NCBI GenBank assembly: GCA_031279925.1
Contig: JAITHQ010000094.1
Location: 1-13,712 of the forward strand
Direction: 5' to 3'
Origin: Treponema sp.
Lineage (GTDB): Bacteria > Spirochaetota > Spirochaetia > Treponematales > Breznakiellaceae
DNA length: 13,712 nucleotides
Shown: positions 3,062 to 10,274 of the stretch, piece by piece
Position numbering within the stretch: the first letter of the stretch is position 1
Layout: every line of letters begins with the position of its first letter
Notes under the pieces: model-generated
The model's input: only the letters and a program-made list of their open reading frames with translations
What the model was told of the DNA's origin: nothing
Database searches by the model: none
Position numbers and translations under genes: made by a program

Positions 3062-4552
3062 ATGAGATATATTGGTTTGGATGTAGGAACTTCCGGATGC
3101 AAAGCGGCAATTGTTGACGGACAGGGCGCTATATACGCGACCGCAAAACGGGAGTACTCATTTGAAATGCCCGCAAGCGGATATGCGGAACTGGATCCTG
3201 CGCTTGTTTGGAACGCGGTGCTTGAAACGCTCTCTGAAATAGGCCCCCGCTCCGGCGGGGTTGCCGCGCTGGCGGTTTCATCCATTGGGGAATCGCTGGT
3301 TATGCTGGACCGGGATGATAAACCCCTGGCGAAAAGTATCATCTATCTTGACGCCAGAGGCAAAGATATACTTCCGTACATTGCCGGAAAAATAGACGCA
3401 AGGGAATTGTTTGCCATAACCGGAATGCATAACCACCGCATGTATTCGTTATGCCGCTTTTTGTGGTATCGAAAAAACACGCCGTCTGTTATCGAAAACG
3501 CGGACAAAATATGTATGTTCTGCGATTTCCTGAATTATCAATTGACCGGCAAGCGCGCGCTTGATCCAGGCAGCGCGTCCCGCAGCTCGATGTTTAATGC
3601 AAAAAAACGGGAATGGTCGGCATCCATAATGGACTTGTTTGCAATACCCCAAGAAAAATTCAGCCCTGTCGCGGCCACAGGCGCCATTATCGGCAATCTG
3701 CTTCCCCAGATTGCCCGCACAACCGGCCTGCCCAAAGATTTACAGGTTGTTCTGGGCTGTCACGATCAGTGCTCCGCTACTCTGGGGGCGGGTGTTCTGG
3801 ATCAGGGACAGATCATGCTGGGAGAAGGATCGACCGAGGGCATAAACGCCATAATTAAAACTGAACATATTGACGAAGACGCGCTCTTCAAAAAACAAAT
3901 CAGTCTGGAGCCGTATATCAGCCCGGATACCTATATCGCTGCCCTGGGTACTTTGCAGCATGGTACGGCGATTCAGTGGTTTGTGCAAAACAACGCCGCT
4001 TTTTATGATACCAAGCCCTCTTTGGAAAATGAAACGTTATTCGCAAAGGCGGATCGGTATTGCGCCGAAAATTCCGGCGAGCTTTATTTTATTCCCTATC
4101 TTTCCCGTTCCAATATAATGGATACCGCAAATCAGGCATTGGGCTGTTTTATCGGGCTGGAATTTGACAGTACGGTTAATACCATGTATTGCGCCGTTCT
4201 TGAAGGTCTTGCGTTCGAGACTAAATACAACATGCTGAATCTTGAACAGAGCGGATATACGCCTGAGTTTTTTGCGGCAACCGGGGGCGGGGCAAAATCG
4301 GCGCTGCTGATGCAGATAAAAGCGGATGTGCTTGATTGCGCCATTAATATTCCCCAAAGCGCCGATTCCGGAATAGTGGGACTTGCGATGATCTGCGCGG
4401 TAGCAATGGGCGAATACCACAACTACCGTGAAGCTGCTGAACGGTTTATCAAAATCAAAAAGACCTTTAACCCTCAAACCGATTGCCGCATGCGGTGTAA
4501 CCGTTACATACAAATCAACCGGACCATAAAAAAATTGTATGATGTAATATAA
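3062..4552 (+). CDS. divergent FGGY-family carbohydrate kinase
   Basis: This 496-residue sugar kinase has the FGGY family fold of two RNase-H-like domains and phosphorylates a ketose or polyol with ATP. Visible motifs: the N-terminal phosphate loop GLDVGTSGCK (5-14), the catalytic aspartate D235 in GCHDQ, GEGSTEG (254-260), FIPYLSRS (343-350) and the adenosine-binding ATGGGAKS (406-413). The length is normal for the family. Two spots differ from canonical xylulokinases: the substrate and hinge segment reads PYLSRSN instead of PYLxGER-P, and GCHDQ replaces GGGD. This suggests a substrate other than D-xylulose, or a distinct clade; D-apulose, L-xylulose and tetrulose are possible but unproven. 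The ATG at 3062 follows GAGGA (3048-3052). It lies 36 bp after the aldolase and is probably co-transcribed with it. Confidence 0.88.
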   Translation: MRYIGLDVGTSGCKAAIVDGQGAIYATAKREYSFEMPASGYAELDPALVWNAVLETLSEIGPRSGGVAALAVSSIGESLVMLDRDDKPLAKSIIYLDARGKDILPYIAGKIDARELFAITGMHNHRMYSLCRFLWYRKNTPSVIENADKICMFCDFLNYQLTGKRALDPGSASRSSMFNAKKREWSASIMDLFAIPQEKFSPVAATGAIIGNLLPQIARTTGLPKDLQVVLGCHDQCSATLGAGVLDQGQIMLGEGSTEGINAIIKTEHIDEDALFKKQISLEPYISPDTYIAALGTLQHGTAIQWFVQNNAAFYDTKPSLENETLFAKADRYCAENSGELYFIPYLSRSNIMDTANQALGCFIGLEFDSTVNTMYCAVLEGLAFETKYNMLNLEQSGYTPEFFAATGGGAKSALLMQIKADVLDCAINIPQSADSGIVGLAMICAVAMGEYHNYREAAERFIKIKKTFNPQTDCRMRCNRYIQINRTIKKLYDVI

Positions 4553-4608: not shown

Positions 4609-4638
4609 TTGACAGATGTGTTAAGGGGGGAGTATAAT
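4609..4638 (+). promoter_or_regulatory. consensus sigma70 promoter for the first ABC transporter operon
   Basis: TTGACA (4609-4614) and TATAAT (4633-4638) both match the sigma70 consensus exactly, with an 18-bp spacer. The 27 bases upstream (4582-4608) are almost entirely A/T and could serve as an UP element. Transcription should start near 4645, giving a leader of about 220 nt before the binding-protein gene. Confidence 0.85.
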
Positions 4639-4776
4639 TGTGGACATTATACGGCAGATTTGTCCGGGAACTTCAGTTTTGGAACAAATACCTTTTAAAT
4701 ACGCATGTTTTGCCGGACTGTAGTCTGTTCCGGCAAAGCGAAGGTTGGTTGGAAAGAAACTGTAGGGATATTTGGT

Positions 4777-4833
4777 ATGGCTGAATCGTATCGGCTTCCG
4801 GGCGGCGTTGATTGTGGGTACAATATCCCTTGA
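4777..4833 (+). CDS. possible 18-residue leader peptide
   Basis: ATG at 4777 opens an 18-codon frame, MAESYRLPGGVDCGYNIP, ending with TGA at 4831-4833, exactly in the loop of the candidate terminator hairpin. A weak ribosome site, AGGG (4764-4767), lies nine bases upstream and is part of the alternative antiterminator arm. There is no run of a single amino acid, so it is not a classical amino acid attenuator. It may be chance. Confidence 0.25.
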   Translation: MAESYRLPGGVDCGYNIP

Positions 4834-4857
4834 GGGATATATATTTTTAGTTTTTTT
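4823..4857 (+). terminator. intrinsic terminator-like hairpin in the leader
   Basis: ATATCCC (4823-4829), loop TTGA and GGGATAT (4834-4840) form a perfect 7-bp hairpin. It is followed by ATATTTTTAG and then seven T (4851-4857). It lies immediately before the GGAGG ribosome site (4858-4862) of the binding-protein gene, so it would attenuate the operon rather than end an upstream gene. Confidence 0.5.
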
Positions 4858-4867
4858 GGAGGAAAGT

Positions 4868-5824
4868 ATGAAAATTGGAAAAATGGTGGTGTGCGCTTTG
4901 ATTCTGGTGCTGCTTTGCGGAACCGCCTTTGCCAAAGGCTCAAGCGCGAAAGAGGGTGGCAAAAAGCAGATTGTGGTAGGCTATGCGCCGCCGACACTGA
5001 ATAACCCGTTCTTTGCCGCATTGGAAGATGCCGCCAAGAAAGTGCTTGAAGCGCAGGGCATCAAGGTTGTGGATTTCCATGCTGATAATGACCAGTCCAT
5101 TCAGAATGACAAGGTTCGGGACCTGTTGACCCAGGGCATTGATGCGCTTATCCTGATACCCCGGGATTCCATTGGCGTCCGCGAATCGCTGCAGGCATGT
5201 AAAGACAAGGGCGTTCCGGTTATTATCGCCGACACCCCGCTAATCACCCCCCAGGATCAGGCAATGGTTGTTTCCACAATCGCGTCTGATAATTTTAATG
5301 CCGGCGTGGTAGTCGCCAAGGATATGATGACCAGGCTGCCCCGGGGTTCCGAAATTGTTATTATGCACTCTCCCGCCGCCGGTTCCTGCATACCACGGTT
5401 TGACGGCTTCCAGGATACCCATGCCGGTTATTTCAATGTCCGCCAGGTGTATGACGGCGAAGGCTCTATCGACAAGACCTTCCCCAAGGCCGAGGATGCC
5501 CTTACTTCTTTCAAAGACCTCAAAGCTATTTACTGCATTAACGATCCTTCCGCCGCAGGCGTTGTCCGGGCGATTGAAGGCGCAAAGCGCCAGGGTATTT
5601 TGGTATACGGCATAGACGGCGCTCCCGATGCCAAGAAGATGATTAAAGAAGGAAAAATGATGGGTACGGGCGCACAGTCTCCCATCAACATCGGCAAAAA
5701 GTCGGCGGAAATAGTGTTGCAATATCTCCAGGGTGACCGTAACATCCCGAAGGATATTCCCATCGAGACCTTTATTATCAATAAAGAAAACGTAGACCAG
5801 TATGGTATAGCAGACTGGCAATAA
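4868..5824 (+). CDS. CUT2 sugar ABC transporter, periplasmic substrate-binding protein (RbsB-like)
   Basis: This 318-residue type I periplasmic binding protein captures sugar and delivers it to the permease encoded downstream. An N-terminal signal peptide is clear: MKIGK, a hydrophobic stretch (about 6-20), and FA (21-22) before the linker KGSSAKEGG. C17 lies in LLCG, which is a poor lipobox, so a lipoprotein is unlikely but not excluded. The mature protein has VGYAPPTLNNPFF (37-49) at the first strand, the inter-domain region near TIASDNFNAG (137-146), INDPSAAG (224-231) and YGIDGAPDA (247-255), all matching the Peripla_BP_4 family. The ATG at 4868 is chosen because GGAGG (4858-4862) lies five bases upstream and the signal peptide starts there. 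The frame is open back to a TTG at 4772, but that extension has no sign of being coded. Bound sugar unknown; pentose-like by family. Confidence 0.9.
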   Translation: MKIGKMVVCALILVLLCGTAFAKGSSAKEGGKKQIVVGYAPPTLNNPFFAALEDAAKKVLEAQGIKVVDFHADNDQSIQNDKVRDLLTQGIDALILIPRDSIGVRESLQACKDKGVPVIIADTPLITPQDQAMVVSTIASDNFNAGVVVAKDMMTRLPRGSEIVIMHSPAAGSCIPRFDGFQDTHAGYFNVRQVYDGEGSIDKTFPKAEDALTSFKDLKAIYCINDPSAAGVVRAIEGAKRQGILVYGIDGAPDAKKMIKEGKMMGTGAQSPINIGKKSAEIVLQYLQGDRNIPKDIPIETFIINKENVDQYGIADWQ

Positions 5825-5850
5825 CTCTTTTGGATAATAGCTGACAAGTT

Positions 5851-5885
5851 AGAGGAGCCACCATGTTTCGTGGCTCCTCTGTTTT
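5851..5885 (+). terminator. strong intercistronic hairpin between binding protein and ATPase
   Basis: AGAGGAGCCAC (5851-5861) and GTGGCTCCTCT (5870-5880) form a perfect 11-bp stem with an 8-nt loop, followed by only four T (5882-5885). It lies right before the ATPase ribosome site. A leaky terminator or 3'-end protecting hairpin here would keep the binding protein more abundant than the membrane complex, as is common in such operons. Confidence 0.6.
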
Positions 5886-5896
5886 AAGGAGGCGAT

Positions 5897-7393
5897 GTGC
5901 AAAAAACATTGCTTAAAATGGAACACATATCAAAATCATTTCCCGGCGTAAAAGCGCTGGAAGACGCGCATCTGGAACTTCAGGAAGGTTCAATACTCGG
6001 CCTGTTAGGTGAAAACGGAGCCGGAAAATCAACGCTTATGAATATTTTGGGCGGTATTTACCGGCCCGATAATGGAACCATTGCCGTTGCCGGAGAACCT
6101 GTTGCCATACATTCGGTATCCGATGCGCAAAAAATGGGGATTTCTTTTATTCACCAGGAACTGGCGCTGGTTCCGTTTCTTTCGGTGGCGGAAAACATTT
6201 ATTTGGGAAGAGAGATCAGGGACCGGTTCGGCATGGTCAGCAAAACCGCCATGAACAAGGAAGCCCAGAAGTACATGGATGTGGTGAGTCTTGACATGGA
6301 CCCGGCTACCAGGATTTCACGGCTCAGTACCGGTCAGCAGCAGATGGTAGAGATAGCCAAAGCCTTCTCCCTTAACGCCCGGATCGTGGTTATGGATGAG
6401 CCTACTTCGTCGTTATCTGAAAAAGAAATTGAAATACTGTTCAAGACCACCCGTGATTTAAAAAAAATGGGCATAGGTATTATTTATATTTCGCATAAAA
6501 TGTCGGAGATTTTTGAGCTGACCGACAAGGTCATGGTAATGCGTGACGGTCATTATGTGGGAGAGAAGGCCACTGCGGAAACCAACACCGATGAGCTTAT
6601 TCAGATGATGGTTGGCCGGGAGCTCAAAAATTACTACGTCCGTACTTACAATAAAAGGGAAGAGGCGGCGATGGAAGTGAAGCGTATCAGTTCCGCAGTC
6701 ACCCAGGTACACGACTGCAGTTTTACGCTCTATAAGGGAGAGGTCCTGGGCTTTTACGGCCTTATCGGCGCGGGACGCTCGGAGCTGATGAACTGCATCA
6801 TGGGTATTGATGAAATTTCCGGCGGTGAATACACCGTTTTTGGAAAAACGATCTCCAAACCTAATCCGCTCATTGCGCGGCGGAATGGTCTTGCGCTGGT
6901 TCCCGAAAGCCGCAAAACCCAGGGGTTGATACTCGAAAATACGGTTTCCTTTAATTCCACCCTCGCGGTGCTTGACAAGTTTATAAGCTGGCTGCGGGTC
7001 AACCGGCAAAAAGAATCCGATATTGTCAACAATGGCGTGGAAAGCATGTCCATCAAGACCCCCTCGGTTAGCCAGCGAGTTGTTAATCTTTCGGGGGGGA
7101 ATCAGCAGAAAGTAGTATTGGCCAAATGGCTCGCCACCTCTCCGGGGATACTTATTCTGGATGAACCAACCAGGGGTATCGACGTCGGGGCCAAGGCGGA
7201 AATTTACCGGATAATTAATGAGCTGGCGGGAAAAGGTATCGCCATTATCATGGTGTCCTCTGAATTGAACGAAGTTATCAACATGAGCGACCGGCTCGTG
7301 GTTATGCGGGAGGATACTATTGCCGGCATATTGGAAAGGGAACATTTCTCGCAGGATATAATTTTAAAGTACGCGCTTGGAGGAAACGAATGA
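5897..7393 (+). CDS. CUT2 sugar ABC transporter, tandem-domain ATPase (RbsA/MglA-like)
   Basis: This 498-residue protein carries two fused ATP-binding domains and powers sugar import at the inner membrane face. Domain 1 has Walker A GENGAGKST (38-46), Q-loop HQE (86-88), signature LSTGQQQ (143-149), Walker B MDEPTSS (166-172) and switch H200. Domain 2 has a variant P-loop GLIGAGRSE (288-296), signature LSGGNQQK (398-405) and LDEPTRGIDVG (421-431), with the switch region reading VSSELNE instead of a histidine. Such an incomplete second site is normal for this family. The start is GTG at 5897, four bases after a full AAGGAGG (5886-5892); the overlapping ATG at 5895 is out of frame. The last codons overlap the permease start by ATGA. 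It works with the binding protein before it and the permease after it. Confidence 0.93.
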   Translation: MQKTLLKMEHISKSFPGVKALEDAHLELQEGSILGLLGENGAGKSTLMNILGGIYRPDNGTIAVAGEPVAIHSVSDAQKMGISFIHQELALVPFLSVAENIYLGREIRDRFGMVSKTAMNKEAQKYMDVVSLDMDPATRISRLSTGQQQMVEIAKAFSLNARIVVMDEPTSSLSEKEIEILFKTTRDLKKMGIGIIYISHKMSEIFELTDKVMVMRDGHYVGEKATAETNTDELIQMMVGRELKNYYVRTYNKREEAAMEVKRISSAVTQVHDCSFTLYKGEVLGFYGLIGAGRSELMNCIMGIDEISGGEYTVFGKTISKPNPLIARRNGLALVPESRKTQGLILENTVSFNSTLAVLDKFISWLRVNRQKESDIVNNGVESMSIKTPSVSQRVVNLSGGNQQKVVLAKWLATSPGILILDEPTRGIDVGAKAEIYRIINELAGKGIAIIMVSSELNEVINMSDRLVVMREDTIAGILEREHFSQDIILKYALGGNE

Positions 7394-8394
7394 ACAAGGA
7401 TAGGTTGTTGCGGTATGAAAAAAATGTGATTGCAGGCCCTGCAATCCGGTATTTACGGGCGAATTTTGGGATACTGTTAGGTTTCTTTTTCCTGTTTATC
7501 CTGTTGTCCATTTTCGCTGATTATTTCTTTTCAGCTGAAAATCTGCTCACGGTTCTGCGGACGGTATCCACCAATGCGTTTCTTGCCATCGGGGTTATGA
7601 TGGCGATTATGCTCGGCGGCATCGATCTTACCGGAGGGGCGCTCATTGCCTTTGCCGGTTGTGTCTGTGTTGTTGCCATGGAACGTATAGGCATGCCCAT
7701 GCCGGCTGCGATTGCCTTTGGGCTTTTTATCGGCGCTGCGGCGGGATTTGCCAATGGCGTAATTATCGCTTATTCCGGCATACATCCCTTTGTGGTAACG
7801 CTGGCCATGATGAGCATCTGCCGGGGCGGGGCCTACCTTGTCGCGGATGGAAGACCGGTTCCCCTCAATAAAAATGTCGAGGCTTTTACCTTCCTGGGAA
7901 ACGGTTATATTGGACCTATTCCCCTGCCGGTAATCTATATGCTGGTGTACCTTTTTCTGGCCTATCTCCTTTTAAACCGTACCCGGATAGGAAGGCATAT
8001 CTATGCCGTGGGCGGAAACCCCATAGCCGCAAAATACTCTGGCGTCAATATCATCCGGGTCAAAATTATGGTCTGGACCATAAGCGGTTTTCTGGGGGCC
8101 TTTGCCGGTGTTGTTCTGGCGGCCCGTATGTCTTCCGGACAGCCATCCGCAGGCGTCAGTTTTGAAACCGATGCGATTGCCGCTGCGGTGCTGGGGGGAA
8201 CCAGTATGTACGGCGGGGTAGGCAATATAGGCGGCGTGTTCATTGGTATCCTGGTTATTGGAATCATCAGTAATGGGTTGAATCTGCTCCATGTTAATTC
8301 TTTCTGGCAGTATGTGGCCAAGGGGGTAATTATACTGCTGGCTGTTTATATTGACATGTACCGGAAAAAGCGGGAAAATGCGCGGAAAGACTAA
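7390..8394 (+). CDS. CUT2 sugar ABC transporter permease (RbsC-like)
   Basis: This 334-residue integral membrane protein of the BPD_transp_2 (RbsC) family probably forms a homodimer with the preceding ATPase. Hydrophobic spans are visible at roughly 27-46, 60-78, 82-100, 104-127, 132-150, 176-196, 226-245, 262-275, 280-300 and 308-322. The family signature GGIDLTGG (76-83) follows the second span. The cytoplasmic coupling loop GRHIYAVGGNPIAAKYSGVN (201-220) contacts the ATPase. The ATG at 7390 overlaps the ATPase stop by four bases, with GGAGG (7379-7383) upstream, so translation is coupled. It is the last gene of this operon; a strong terminator lies about 70 bp after its stop. Confidence 0.92.
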   Translation: MNKDRLLRYEKNVIAGPAIRYLRANFGILLGFFFLFILLSIFADYFFSAENLLTVLRTVSTNAFLAIGVMMAIMLGGIDLTGGALIAFAGCVCVVAMERIGMPMPAAIAFGLFIGAAAGFANGVIIAYSGIHPFVVTLAMMSICRGGAYLVADGRPVPLNKNVEAFTFLGNGYIGPIPLPVIYMLVYLFLAYLLLNRTRIGRHIYAVGGNPIAAKYSGVNIIRVKIMVWTISGFLGAFAGVVLAARMSSGQPSAGVSFETDAIAAAVLGGTSMYGGVGNIGGVFIGILVIGIISNGLNLLHVNSFWQYVAKGVIILLAVYIDMYRKKRENARKD

Positions 8395-8466
8395 ACAATG
8401 GCGGAAAAGCCTGAATTTAAGGTGTTTTATGGCCGGAAATAGCAAGGCAAGATAAAATATTGCGGC

Positions 8467-8496
8467 AGTTGCAAAACTTCAGTTTTGCAACTTTTT
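8467..8496 (+). terminator. rho-independent terminator of the first transporter operon
   Basis: AGTTGCAAAAC (8467-8477), loop TTCA and GTTTTGCAACT (8482-8492) form an 11-bp perfect stem, followed by T residues to 8496. Between the permease stop and this hairpin (8395-8466) I see nothing else. This ends the first transporter unit before the next promoter. Confidence 0.85.
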
Positions 8497-8536
8497 CTGT
8501 CTCTGTGTAAACCCATCCCTGGTTTTGCATCCGGCA

Positions 8537-8562: not shown

Positions 8563-8592
8563 TTGACATAAAAAAATATTGAGGTTTATAAT
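8563..8592 (+). promoter_or_regulatory. consensus sigma70 promoter for the second ABC transporter operon
   Basis: TTGACA (8563-8568) and TATAAT (8587-8592) are exact consensus hexamers with an 18-bp spacer, the same as the promoter at 4609. The start of transcription should be near 8599. The tandem 11-bp repeat lies directly upstream. Confidence 0.85.
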
Positions 8593-8598
8593 GTATAA

Positions 8599-8768
8599 CA
8601 ATAGTTGTTGCGAGTCTGGGTGGTGGACTCTTGTCCGGTAAATATCCCTTAAATCACCATGTGCCATGTGTACATCAGTTATTCAAGGCTCTCTATTGGG
8701 GAACCAATAGAGGACTTACCCAATTCTGCGGCGGCAGGGTGGTTAAAGGTTTATGGGTGCGGGGATAT
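8599..8768 (+). promoter_or_regulatory. structured 5' leader able to cover the ATPase translation start
   Basis: Together with the terminator and promoter before it, this accounts for the 374 bases between permease and ATPase. Stems seen: GAGTC (8612-8616) with GACTC (8626-8630), and CTCTATTGG (8691-8699) with CCAATAGAG (8704-8712), closed by GGAA, a GNRA tetraloop. The element ATATCCCT (8642-8649) is complementary to GGGGATAT (8761-8768; seven Watson-Crick pairs and one T·G), which is the only ribosome-site-like sequence and directly abuts the ATG. Such pairing would block initiation. AATATCCCTT (8641-8650) is shared with the other transporter leader. Fold and role are inferred by eye. Confidence 0.45.
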
Positions 8769-10274
8769 ATGGAAGAAAACTATATTTTTGAATGTGAAGG
8801 CGTCTCAAAATCTTTTGGTGGTATTCATGCGCTGAATAATGTCCAGTTAAAAGTTAAAAATGGAGAAGTCCATGCCCTGCTGGGGGAAAACGGGGCCGGT
8901 AAGTCAACCTTGATGAAGATCATTATCGGTCTGTACCGGGCCGATTCCGGAGAAATGATCTTTGAGGGAAAGCCCTACACCGTAAGGGGTCCGGCTGAAG
9001 CAATCAAATATGGCATTTCCATGATACATCAGGAACTGAATCCTGAACCCCATCTGACCGTTGCGGAGAGCATTTTCCTTAACAGGGAAGATACCTACGG
9101 GAAAACTCCCTTCCTGAACAAAGCGGAAACGAACCGGAAGGCTGCCAAAATTCTGGAAAGTTTTGACTTCTGTATAAATTGTAAAATGCTGATGGAAGAG
9201 CTCACCCTGGCCCAGATTCAGATGATAGAAATAATCAAGGCGGTTTCGTGTAACGCACGGCTTATCATTATGGATGAGCCGACTTCTTCCTTGGACAGTG
9301 AGGAAACGGACCGCCTGTTCCGTACAATTCGGGGCTTGAAGGCTAAAGGTGTTTCCGTTATCTATATTTCCCACCGCATGGAAGAAATTTTTGAAATCTG
9401 CGACAAAGTATCCCTGTTCAGGGACGGCAGGTACATTGACACCCGTTTTCTCAGTGATGTTACCAAGGATGAGTTGATCTCGAAAATGGTTGGGCGGGAA
9501 GTGAAAAATGTATTTCCCAAAACAGACTGCCAAATGGGCAATGTGGCTTTTGCTGTGGAAGGTCTTTCGGGAAATGGCTTTAACAATATAAGTTTCAATG
9601 CTCACCAGGGTGAAATTCTGGGCATTTCAGGACTGGTTGGATCGGGACGAAGTGAAACCATGCGGGCCATCTTTGGCCTTGATCCCCTGGCTGCGGGAAA
9701 AATATTTCTGGAAGGGAAAGAGATTGTCATCAAAAATCCCGAGGACGCCATTGCGAAAGGTATATGCATGGTCAACGAAGATCGCAAGGGATTCGGCCTG
9801 TGCCTGACCCGCTCCCTGCGGGAAAATATATCCCTTCCCAATCTGCAAAAAAAACATAAGGGTTTATTGATAAATCAAAAGAGGGAAATCAGCGAAACGG
9901 CGGAGACTTCAAAAGTCCTGACCGTCAAGGCGGCAAGCATCGAGTCCGAGGCGTACTCCCTTAGCGGGGGAAACCAGCAAAAAGTTGTACTTGCCAAATG
10001 GATTATGGCGAAACCCAAAGTGCTGATCCTGGATGAACCGACCCGCGGCGTTGACGTGGGCGCCAAGTCAGAGATTCATACCCTGATGTGCCGGTTTGCC
10101 GCGGAAGGTATGGCGATTATCATGATTTCCTCGGAGCTGCCAGAAATTATGGGAATGAGCGACCGGGTGATTATTTTTCATGAAGGCAAAACAAACGGAG
10201 AGGTTTTCCGGAAAGATATTTTGAGCGGAGCGGTTACTCAGGAAATGATTTTGGCAAAAGAATTTGGACAATAG
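8769..10274 (+). CDS. second CUT2 sugar ABC transporter, tandem-domain ATPase (MglA/RbsA-like)
   Basis: This 501-residue dual ATP-binding protein is the energising subunit of the second sugar importer. Domain 1 shows Walker A GENGAGKST (39-47), HQE (87-89), a divergent signature LTLAQIQ (145-151) in place of LSGGQ, Walker B MDEPTSS (168-174) and switch H202. MglA-type proteins also diverge at this signature. Domain 2 shows GLVGSGRSE (288-296), LSGGNQQK (398-405), LDEPTRGVDVG (421-431) and SSELPE (454-459). The ATG at 8769 gives the usual family length of about 500. The frame is open for 46 codons upstream to a TTG at 8631, but that extension resembles no ATPase N-terminus and overlaps the structured leader. 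The ribosome site is a weak GGGG only four bases from the ATG. The permease follows after 15 bp. Confidence 0.92.
   Translation: MEENYIFECEGVSKSFGGIHALNNVQLKVKNGEVHALLGENGAGKSTLMKIIIGLYRADSGEMIFEGKPYTVRGPAEAIKYGISMIHQELNPEPHLTVAESIFLNREDTYGKTPFLNKAETNRKAAKILESFDFCINCKMLMEELTLAQIQMIEIIKAVSCNARLIIMDEPTSSLDSEETDRLFRTIRGLKAKGVSVIYISHRMEEIFEICDKVSLFRDGRYIDTRFLSDVTKDELISKMVGREVKNVFPKTDCQMGNVAFAVEGLSGNGFNNISFNAHQGEILGISGLVGSGRSETMRAIFGLDPLAAGKIFLEGKEIVIKNPEDAIAKGICMVNEDRKGFGLCLTRSLRENISLPNLQKKHKGLLINQKREISETAETSKVLTVKAASIESEAYSLSGGNQQKVVLAKWIMAKPKVLILDEPTRGVDVGAKSEIHTLMCRFAAEGMAIIMISSELPEIMGMSDRVIIFHEGKTNGEVFRKDILSGAVTQEMILAKEFGQ

What the first reader, a model, noticed from the sequence alone, without database searches (positions are those of the whole stretch)
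4645..4867. Possible undescribed riboswitch or attenuator in front of the first sugar transporter
The 220-nt leader has two 5' stem-loops, then a switch built from AGGGATATT (4764-4772), AATATCCCT (4822-4830) and AGGGATAT (4833-4840). The middle segment can pair with either flank: with the downstream one it makes a hairpin followed by T runs, with the upstream one a nine-pair antiterminator helix. This duplicated-arm arrangement is the hallmark of transcription attenuation. I cannot match it to a known riboswitch class.
Basis: partly seen in the sequence, partly recalled or inferred. Interest (0 to 1): 0.75.

Follow-up and report, generated by a model that had tools for sequence, protein, structure and literature searches.

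The report
Repeat plus hairpin before sugar transporter
The RNA leader in front of a sugar-transport gene of a Treponema-like bacterium is half a worn copy of a short repeat scattered through related genomes and half a small hairpin near the ribosome-binding site; it could act as a switch, but nothing found here shows that it does.

Summary
The three complementary segments are real, correctly placed and beyond chance (0 of 5000 shuffles). Rfam has no significant match. The leader is a mosaic. (2) About 4813-4867 aligns with L002, the only similar leader found: the hairpin is kept with two compensatory pairs, but the upstream arm is absent and the T run broken. (3) 4745-4856 gave only three 21-34-nt chance-level matches in 195 family genomes. 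Folded without the repeat's first hairpin the domain switches from antiterminator to hairpin and is near balance in its shortest form; the full leader disfavours the antiterminator. Best reading: an RBS-proximal mRNA hairpin, more likely stabilising or tuning than a sugar-sensing riboswitch, behind a decayed repeat. Attenuation remains possible but rests on one sequence.

The parts
4609..4638 (+). sigma-70 promoter-like site, TTGACA-18-TATAAT (12 of 12); transcription start inferred near 4645
   Evidence: start is inference
4655..4765 (+). diverged copy of a dispersed three-hairpin intergenic repeat; hairpin 1 at 4658-4689, hairpin 2 at 4707-4739, third hairpin degenerate
   Evidence: cmsearch model R1 55.9 bits, E 5.6e-13; folds; blastn; copies
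   Evidence: L002
4822..4830 (+). middle arm AATATCCCT, able to pair with either flank
4833..4840 (+). downstream arm AGGGATAT
4823..4840 (+). RBS-proximal hairpin ATATCCC-TTGA-GGGATAT, kept in L002 with two double-sided changes
4813..4867 (+). leader 3' module that aligns with L002 (GGGTAC, hairpin, T-rich stretch, Shine-Dalgarno)
   Evidence: score 30 reached by 0 of 5000 and 1 of 5000 shuffles
4858..4862 (+). Shine-Dalgarno GGAGG of the binding-protein gene
   Evidence: anti-SD duplex -9.3 kcal/mol
4868..5824 (+). sugar-binding protein gene (Peripla_BP_4; RbsB-like, below the NCBIfam cut-off)
5851..5880 (+). strong hairpin between the binding-protein and ABC genes; a hairpin of other sequence lies at the same place in L001

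Best explanation
The leader is a mosaic. A promoter at 4609-4638 drives a transcript whose first ~110 nt are a decayed copy of a dispersed intergenic repeat. The functional part is the 3' module (about 4813-4867): a 7-bp hairpin 17 nt upstream of an exposed Shine-Dalgarno. It most likely acts at the mRNA level, protecting or marking the 5' end of the presumably highly expressed binding-protein segment (with the strong hairpin at 5851-5880 at the other end) and keeping the ribosome-binding site open. The upstream arm that would make it an attenuator is, on present data, private to this sequence. Shown: repeat membership, hairpin kept by compensation in one relative, no upstream arm found there. 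Inferred: promoter use, expression level and the stabilising or tuning role.
For: Repeat: window copy E 5.6e-13 with a model that did not contain it; 149 of 195 family genomes have matches at E<=1e-9. Hairpin: all 7 pairs kept in L002, 2 by changes on both sides and 1 by a change on one side, in a leader stretch whose similarity score (30) is reached by 0 of 5000 and 1 of 5000 shuffles and exceeds those of 24 other binding-protein upstream regions (6-19; 24 of the 27). L002 lacks the upstream arm (best 6 of 8, G-U allowed), and its hairpin lies in a 62-nt gap behind an rpiR-type gene. Hairpins below 5% of shuffles also precede the start in L003, L004, L005 and L007 (L004 and L007 are close kin). 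Hairpins of different sequence separate binding-protein and ABC genes in the window and L001.
Against: Two sequences only, and the two-row shuffle control has no power (136 of 500 as high). L006 and L008 show no such hairpin, and the window's own hairpin is not unusually stable for its composition (78 of 300 shuffles as good). Hairpins at or below 5% of shuffles also precede 5 of 10 other genes of the window, so a hairpin near a start codon is no signature. The duplicated upstream arm is beyond chance, which this reading leaves unexplained. No expression data.
Confidence: 0.45

Rival explanations
1. A transcription attenuator in 4750-4867: the antiterminator 4764-4772/4822-4830 forms first and the 3' hairpin plus T runs ends transcription unless a protein, a ribosome or a ligand holds the antiterminator.
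For: Triple absent from 5000 shuffles. The isolated domain is nearly balanced from 4760 to 4867 (antiterminator 0.55, hairpin 0.44); from 4750 the antiterminator holds to 4846 (0.88) and gives way by 4856 (0.02). With pairing spans limited to 80 or 120 nt the antiterminator reaches 0.99-1.0 at 4831.
Against: With the full leader the antiterminator is at most 0.09; with spans of 40 or 60 nt it is 0. Low terminator score. Upstream arm not found and T run broken in L002. Only three chance-level matches to 4745-4856 in 195 family genomes.
Confidence: 0.25
2. The palindrome is a DNA operator (for example of an RpiR-type regulator) placed downstream of the promoter.
For: Perfect 7+7 palindrome. In L002 the counterpart lies between an rpiR/SIS regulator gene and the binding-protein gene.
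Against: In L002 one position is G-T, which breaks a DNA palindrome but not an RNA stem, and both half-sites changed at two positions. No exact ATATCCCTNNAGGGATAT in 195 family genomes. No regulator among the 11 window genes given to the family libraries.
Confidence: 0.18
3. A true riboswitch whose aptamer is 4764-4830, closed by the antiterminator helix, sensing a sugar or sugar phosphate.
For: Closing helix shared with the 3' hairpin and inner helices in the predicted fold of 4764-4830 (-19.6 kcal/mol), in front of a sugar transporter.
Against: No Rfam match, no homologue found, upstream arm missing in L002, so no conserved core can be shown.
Confidence: 0.07
4. Leader-peptide control: a small ORF 4777-4833 (18 codons), with AGGG 4764-4767 as weak Shine-Dalgarno and its stop in the hairpin loop, couples translation to the hairpin.
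For: The ORF is open and its TGA lies at 4831-4833.
Against: Codon usage like non-coding DNA (0.032 per codon; 27% of 318 open non-coding stretches are as good; another frame of the same stretch scores 0.151) and weak SD (-3.8 against -9.3 to -11.1 kcal/mol for SBP1, ABC1 and SBP2). No run of control codons (translation).
Confidence: 0.05

Closest known systems
Dispersed intergenic palindromic repeats (REP/REPIN/BIME, MITE-like elements; definitions recalled, with search listings)
   Same: Short (about 125 nt), high copy, mostly intergenic, both orientations, hairpins kept by compensatory change, similar inverted ends
   Different: Three unlike hairpins; 1 of 13 Y1-transposase loci tested has a (weak) copy nearby; no parent transposase found; no Rfam match at gathering score in six loci
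Intercistronic/5' mRNA hairpins around binding-protein genes (malE-type segmental stability; recalled)
   Same: Hairpin in front of the binding-protein RBS and another behind the gene
   Different: No RNA half-life data; the front hairpin is only 7 bp
Transcription attenuators and ON riboswitches with a shared terminator arm (recalled)
   Same: Three segments, two exclusive helices, T run
   Different: No conserved aptamer found, weak terminator, upstream arm not found in the one relative

Membership tests
Known riboswitch or attenuator class in Rfam 15 | match to a family covariance model | tested here: not met
   nothing over the leader at E<=5; only E 7.7 and 9.9, on the minus strand, far below the gathering scores
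Transcription attenuator | mutually exclusive helices sharing one arm | tested here: met
Transcription attenuator | intrinsic terminator of usual strength | tested here: inconclusive
   d'Aubenton-Carafa-type score -27 to -41 and 7 bp, -7.4 kcal/mol; but the formula is recalled, uses another energy set, and gave -0.5, -30.0 and -57.0 for three other hairpins, so it discriminates poorly
Transcription attenuator | conservation of all three arms in homologues | tested here: inconclusive
   one similar leader only (L002): hairpin kept, upstream arm not found
Transcription attenuator | condition-dependent read-through | not testable with these tools
   no transcript data
Dispersed repeat of the Treponema-like family (this work) | match to model R1 built from 12 copies in relatives | tested here: met
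   4655-4765, 55.9 bits, E 5.6e-13; third hairpin degenerate
REPIN/RAYT system | Y1 transposase flanked by the repeat | tested here: not met
   1 of 13 PF01797 loci tested has a match (weak, E 1.2e-4); flanks are 1.5 kb or less and often cut by contig ends; 2 of the 15 fetched loci (L125, L134) were not tested; G152 and G179 have 36 and 38 copies but no PF01797 match
IS-derived MITE | target-site duplication and a parent transposase | not tested
   copies begin near TAGAG and end near GTC; no empty-site comparison made

The most novel reading that the evidence does not exclude
The 4750-4867 domain is a bistable orphan switch, and the repeat copy upstream has been co-opted to set it: helix 4661-4669/4796-4804 between repeat and switch domain opens the antiterminator, so the state of a dispersed repeat decides whether the sugar transporter is transcribed.
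Probability: 0.1. Interest if true: 0.7.

Novelty: new member of a known kind. Interest (0 to 1): 0.35.

Why it matters
It shows how a leader that looks like one designed riboswitch can be a mosaic of a dispersed repeat and a short conserved hairpin. The repeat has matches in 149 of 195 genomes of this Treponema-like family and was not seen in the listings of the paper searches made here, so it deserves a name and should be masked before riboswitch searches in these genomes. If the switch were real, it would be an orphan control element for sugar uptake in spirochetes.

Tried and rejected
Rejected: (a) 5' stem-loops as aptamer: they are a dispersed repeat. (b) A recurring operator: no exact palindrome in 195 genomes. 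(c) A motif shared by the two transporter leaders: AATATCCCT also lies at 8641-8649, but some shared 9-mer arises in 305 of 2000 shuffle pairs. (d) Leader peptide: no codon support. (e) REPIN/RAYT: copies not linked to PF01797 genes. (f) Integron attC sites: considered because Treponema integrons are in print (search listing only, PMC3607928); set aside because copies are scattered in both orientations; no attC model was run.

Led nowhere: viral contigs (21 stretches, none confirmed; 0); plasmids (1104 records, all under 60% identity, not used; one short match, E 0.3); family of L002's genome (1 of 7, itself); a leader pattern with one mismatch in 390 genomes of the order (0, control 0; I saw no row for L002's genome, the known positive, so sensitivity is unproven). 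L001, the closest relative (76-78% identical binding protein), is cut by its contig end before the leader; its kinase orthologue on another contig is followed by other genes, so its leader could not be read.

Limits: model R1 was trained on 12 copies from 11 of the family genomes, so some matches are by construction; at most 17 candidates per genome were scored there and 150; the 15 genomes were chosen, not drawn at random. (190 of 195 genomes with E<=1, three candidates scored per genome) includes chance and low-complexity hits and is not used as a count of copies. One search scored at most four candidates per genome. Genes come from a crude longest-ORF script; 21 of the 30 loci fetched were examined. 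One search left out L009, L057 and L062 of the 27 upstream regions. Searches used 8770 for the ABC2 start, which is 8769; those control rows are off by one base.

Full report
Setting. The window carries split transketolase genes, a class II aldolase, an FGGY kinase, then a binding protein-ABC-permease operon (4868-8394), a second ABC-permease-binding protein operon and a xylulokinase. The closest protein with an organism name is from Treponema primitia (75%), and the closest genome contig is a Treponema MAG (L001, 76%). No whole genome is held for the window. The sugar is not settled: the transporter proteins score below the cut-off of every NCBIfam model shown.

The three segments are exactly placed. 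An arrangement of this kind does not arise in 5000 dinucleotide shuffles at 8 nt, and the window has no other 8-nt case. The promoter-like site at 4609-4638 is a 12-of-12 match, as is one at 8563-8592 before the second operon.

The 5' half is a repeat. A blastn search of the leader in the 195 held genomes of L001's family gave its best hits at 4656-4727, with up to 320 first-look candidates in one genome, of which three per genome were scored. The copies share hairpin 1 (GTTGTTCGGAAACTTCAGTTTCnGAACAAC), a conserved linker (CTTCCnnnTAAAA), a variable hairpin 2 and a third hairpin ending near GAACAAGTC. The consensus fold has 25 pairs, 8 with a change on both sides in at least one copy. Model R1, built from 12 copies not including the window, finds 4655-4765 with 55.9 bits and E 5.6e-13; the second match, 8461-8510 behind the first permease gene, is only E 0.004. 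In 15 chosen genomes 13 have matches at E<=1e-6, from 7 up to the scoring limit of 150; family-wide, 149 of 195 have matches at E<=1e-9. Of 21 copies examined, 17 overlap no ORF and 4 do by a crude ORF caller, and the flanking genes show every combination of directions. That fits a dispersed intergenic element, not a regulator of one gene class. In the window copy the third hairpin is degenerate, and the end of the match at 4765 touches the upstream arm.

The 3' part is a small conserved module. L002 (binding protein 54% identical) aligns from GGGTAC through the hairpin and T-rich stretch to the start codon. Without the Shine-Dalgarno and start codon the similarity score is 30, reached by 0 of 5000 shuffles of L002 and 1 of 5000 of the window; 24 other binding-protein upstream regions score 6-19. 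The seven hairpin pairs are all kept, four unchanged, one by A-U to G-U and two by double changes; sliding the partner destroys this, while the shuffle control with two rows has no power (136 of 500). In L002 the T run is interrupted, and no stretch of the 396 nt upstream pairs with more than 6 of 8 bases of the hairpin's left arm; nearly all of that stretch lies in an rpiR-type regulator gene. So the hairpin is the conserved thing and the upstream arm is not, as far as one relative can tell.

Folding. In the full leader the best fold joins the repeat to the switch region (4661-4669 with 4796-4804) and leaves the antiterminator at 0.09 or less. Starting the fold at 4700-4760 raises it to 0.87-1.0 at 4831, and limiting pairing to 80 or 120 nt raises it to 0.99-1.0; limits of 40 or 60 nt give 0. 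The 3' hairpin wins once 4856 is reached, except when the fold starts at 4760, where the two stay near balance (0.58/0.42) (all). Either folding during transcription makes it a workable switch or the long-range helix disables it; these energies cannot decide. The hairpin scores low as a terminator, though that score was negative for all four hairpins tried.

Mechanism. I favour an mRNA-level role for the hairpin: an exposed Shine-Dalgarno 17 nt behind it, conservation by compensation, and a second strong hairpin behind the binding-protein gene at 5851-5880 whose counterpart in L001 has a different sequence. In L002 the binding-protein gene is followed by a copy of the repeat at 3613-3713 (E 1.3e-10), again hairpins. 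Against it: hairpins are common before genes here (5 of 10 controls at or below 5% of shuffles), two of seven relatives lack one, and the window's own hairpin is not unusually stable (78 of 300). Attenuation stays at about one in four because the duplicated arm is beyond chance.

Print. Six paper searches (0 papers; 39: 1; 40: 12 of 23 listed; 51: 2; 52: 10 of 22 listed; 65: 10 of 16 listed) showed nothing that, by title or start of abstract, describes this repeat; the nearest in kind is a paper on IS605 stem-loops in Borrelia plasmids (PMC2775950, listing only). Term-finding passages were seen in PMC13067680, PMC1590033 and PMC8040213 and did not mention it. One search on sugar-transporter riboswitches or attenuators listed no matching system among the 10 of 22 shown. 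The library is open-access papers only, so absence is weak evidence.

Noticed in passing
window 4655-4765; L092-L121: Dispersed three-hairpin intergenic repeat of about 125 nt with matches in 149 of 195 genomes of the Treponema-like family of L001 (E<=1e-9); no Rfam match at gathering score in six loci tested.
   Followed up: partly
window 8461-8510: Hairpin-1 core of the same repeat type (weak, E 0.004) forms the best terminator-like hairpin of the four scored, behind the first permease gene.
   Followed up: partly
window 5851-5880; L001 926-989: Strong hairpins of different sequence at the same place between binding-protein and ABC genes.
   Followed up: partly
window 4609-4638 and 8563-8592: Two 12-of-12 sigma-70 promoter matches with the same 18-nt spacing, one before each transporter operon.
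   Followed up: no
window 8641-8649 and 8762-8770: The second transporter's leader also holds AATATCCCT and, at its start codon, GGGATATAT; some shared 9-mer arises in 305 of 2000 shuffle pairs.
   Followed up: partly
window 4777-4833: 18-codon ORF whose stop codon lies in the hairpin loop; no codon-usage support.
   Followed up: yes
genome G013: 97 PF01797 (Y1 transposase) matches in one 2.2-Mb genome that has no copy of the repeat at E<=1e-6.
   Followed up: no
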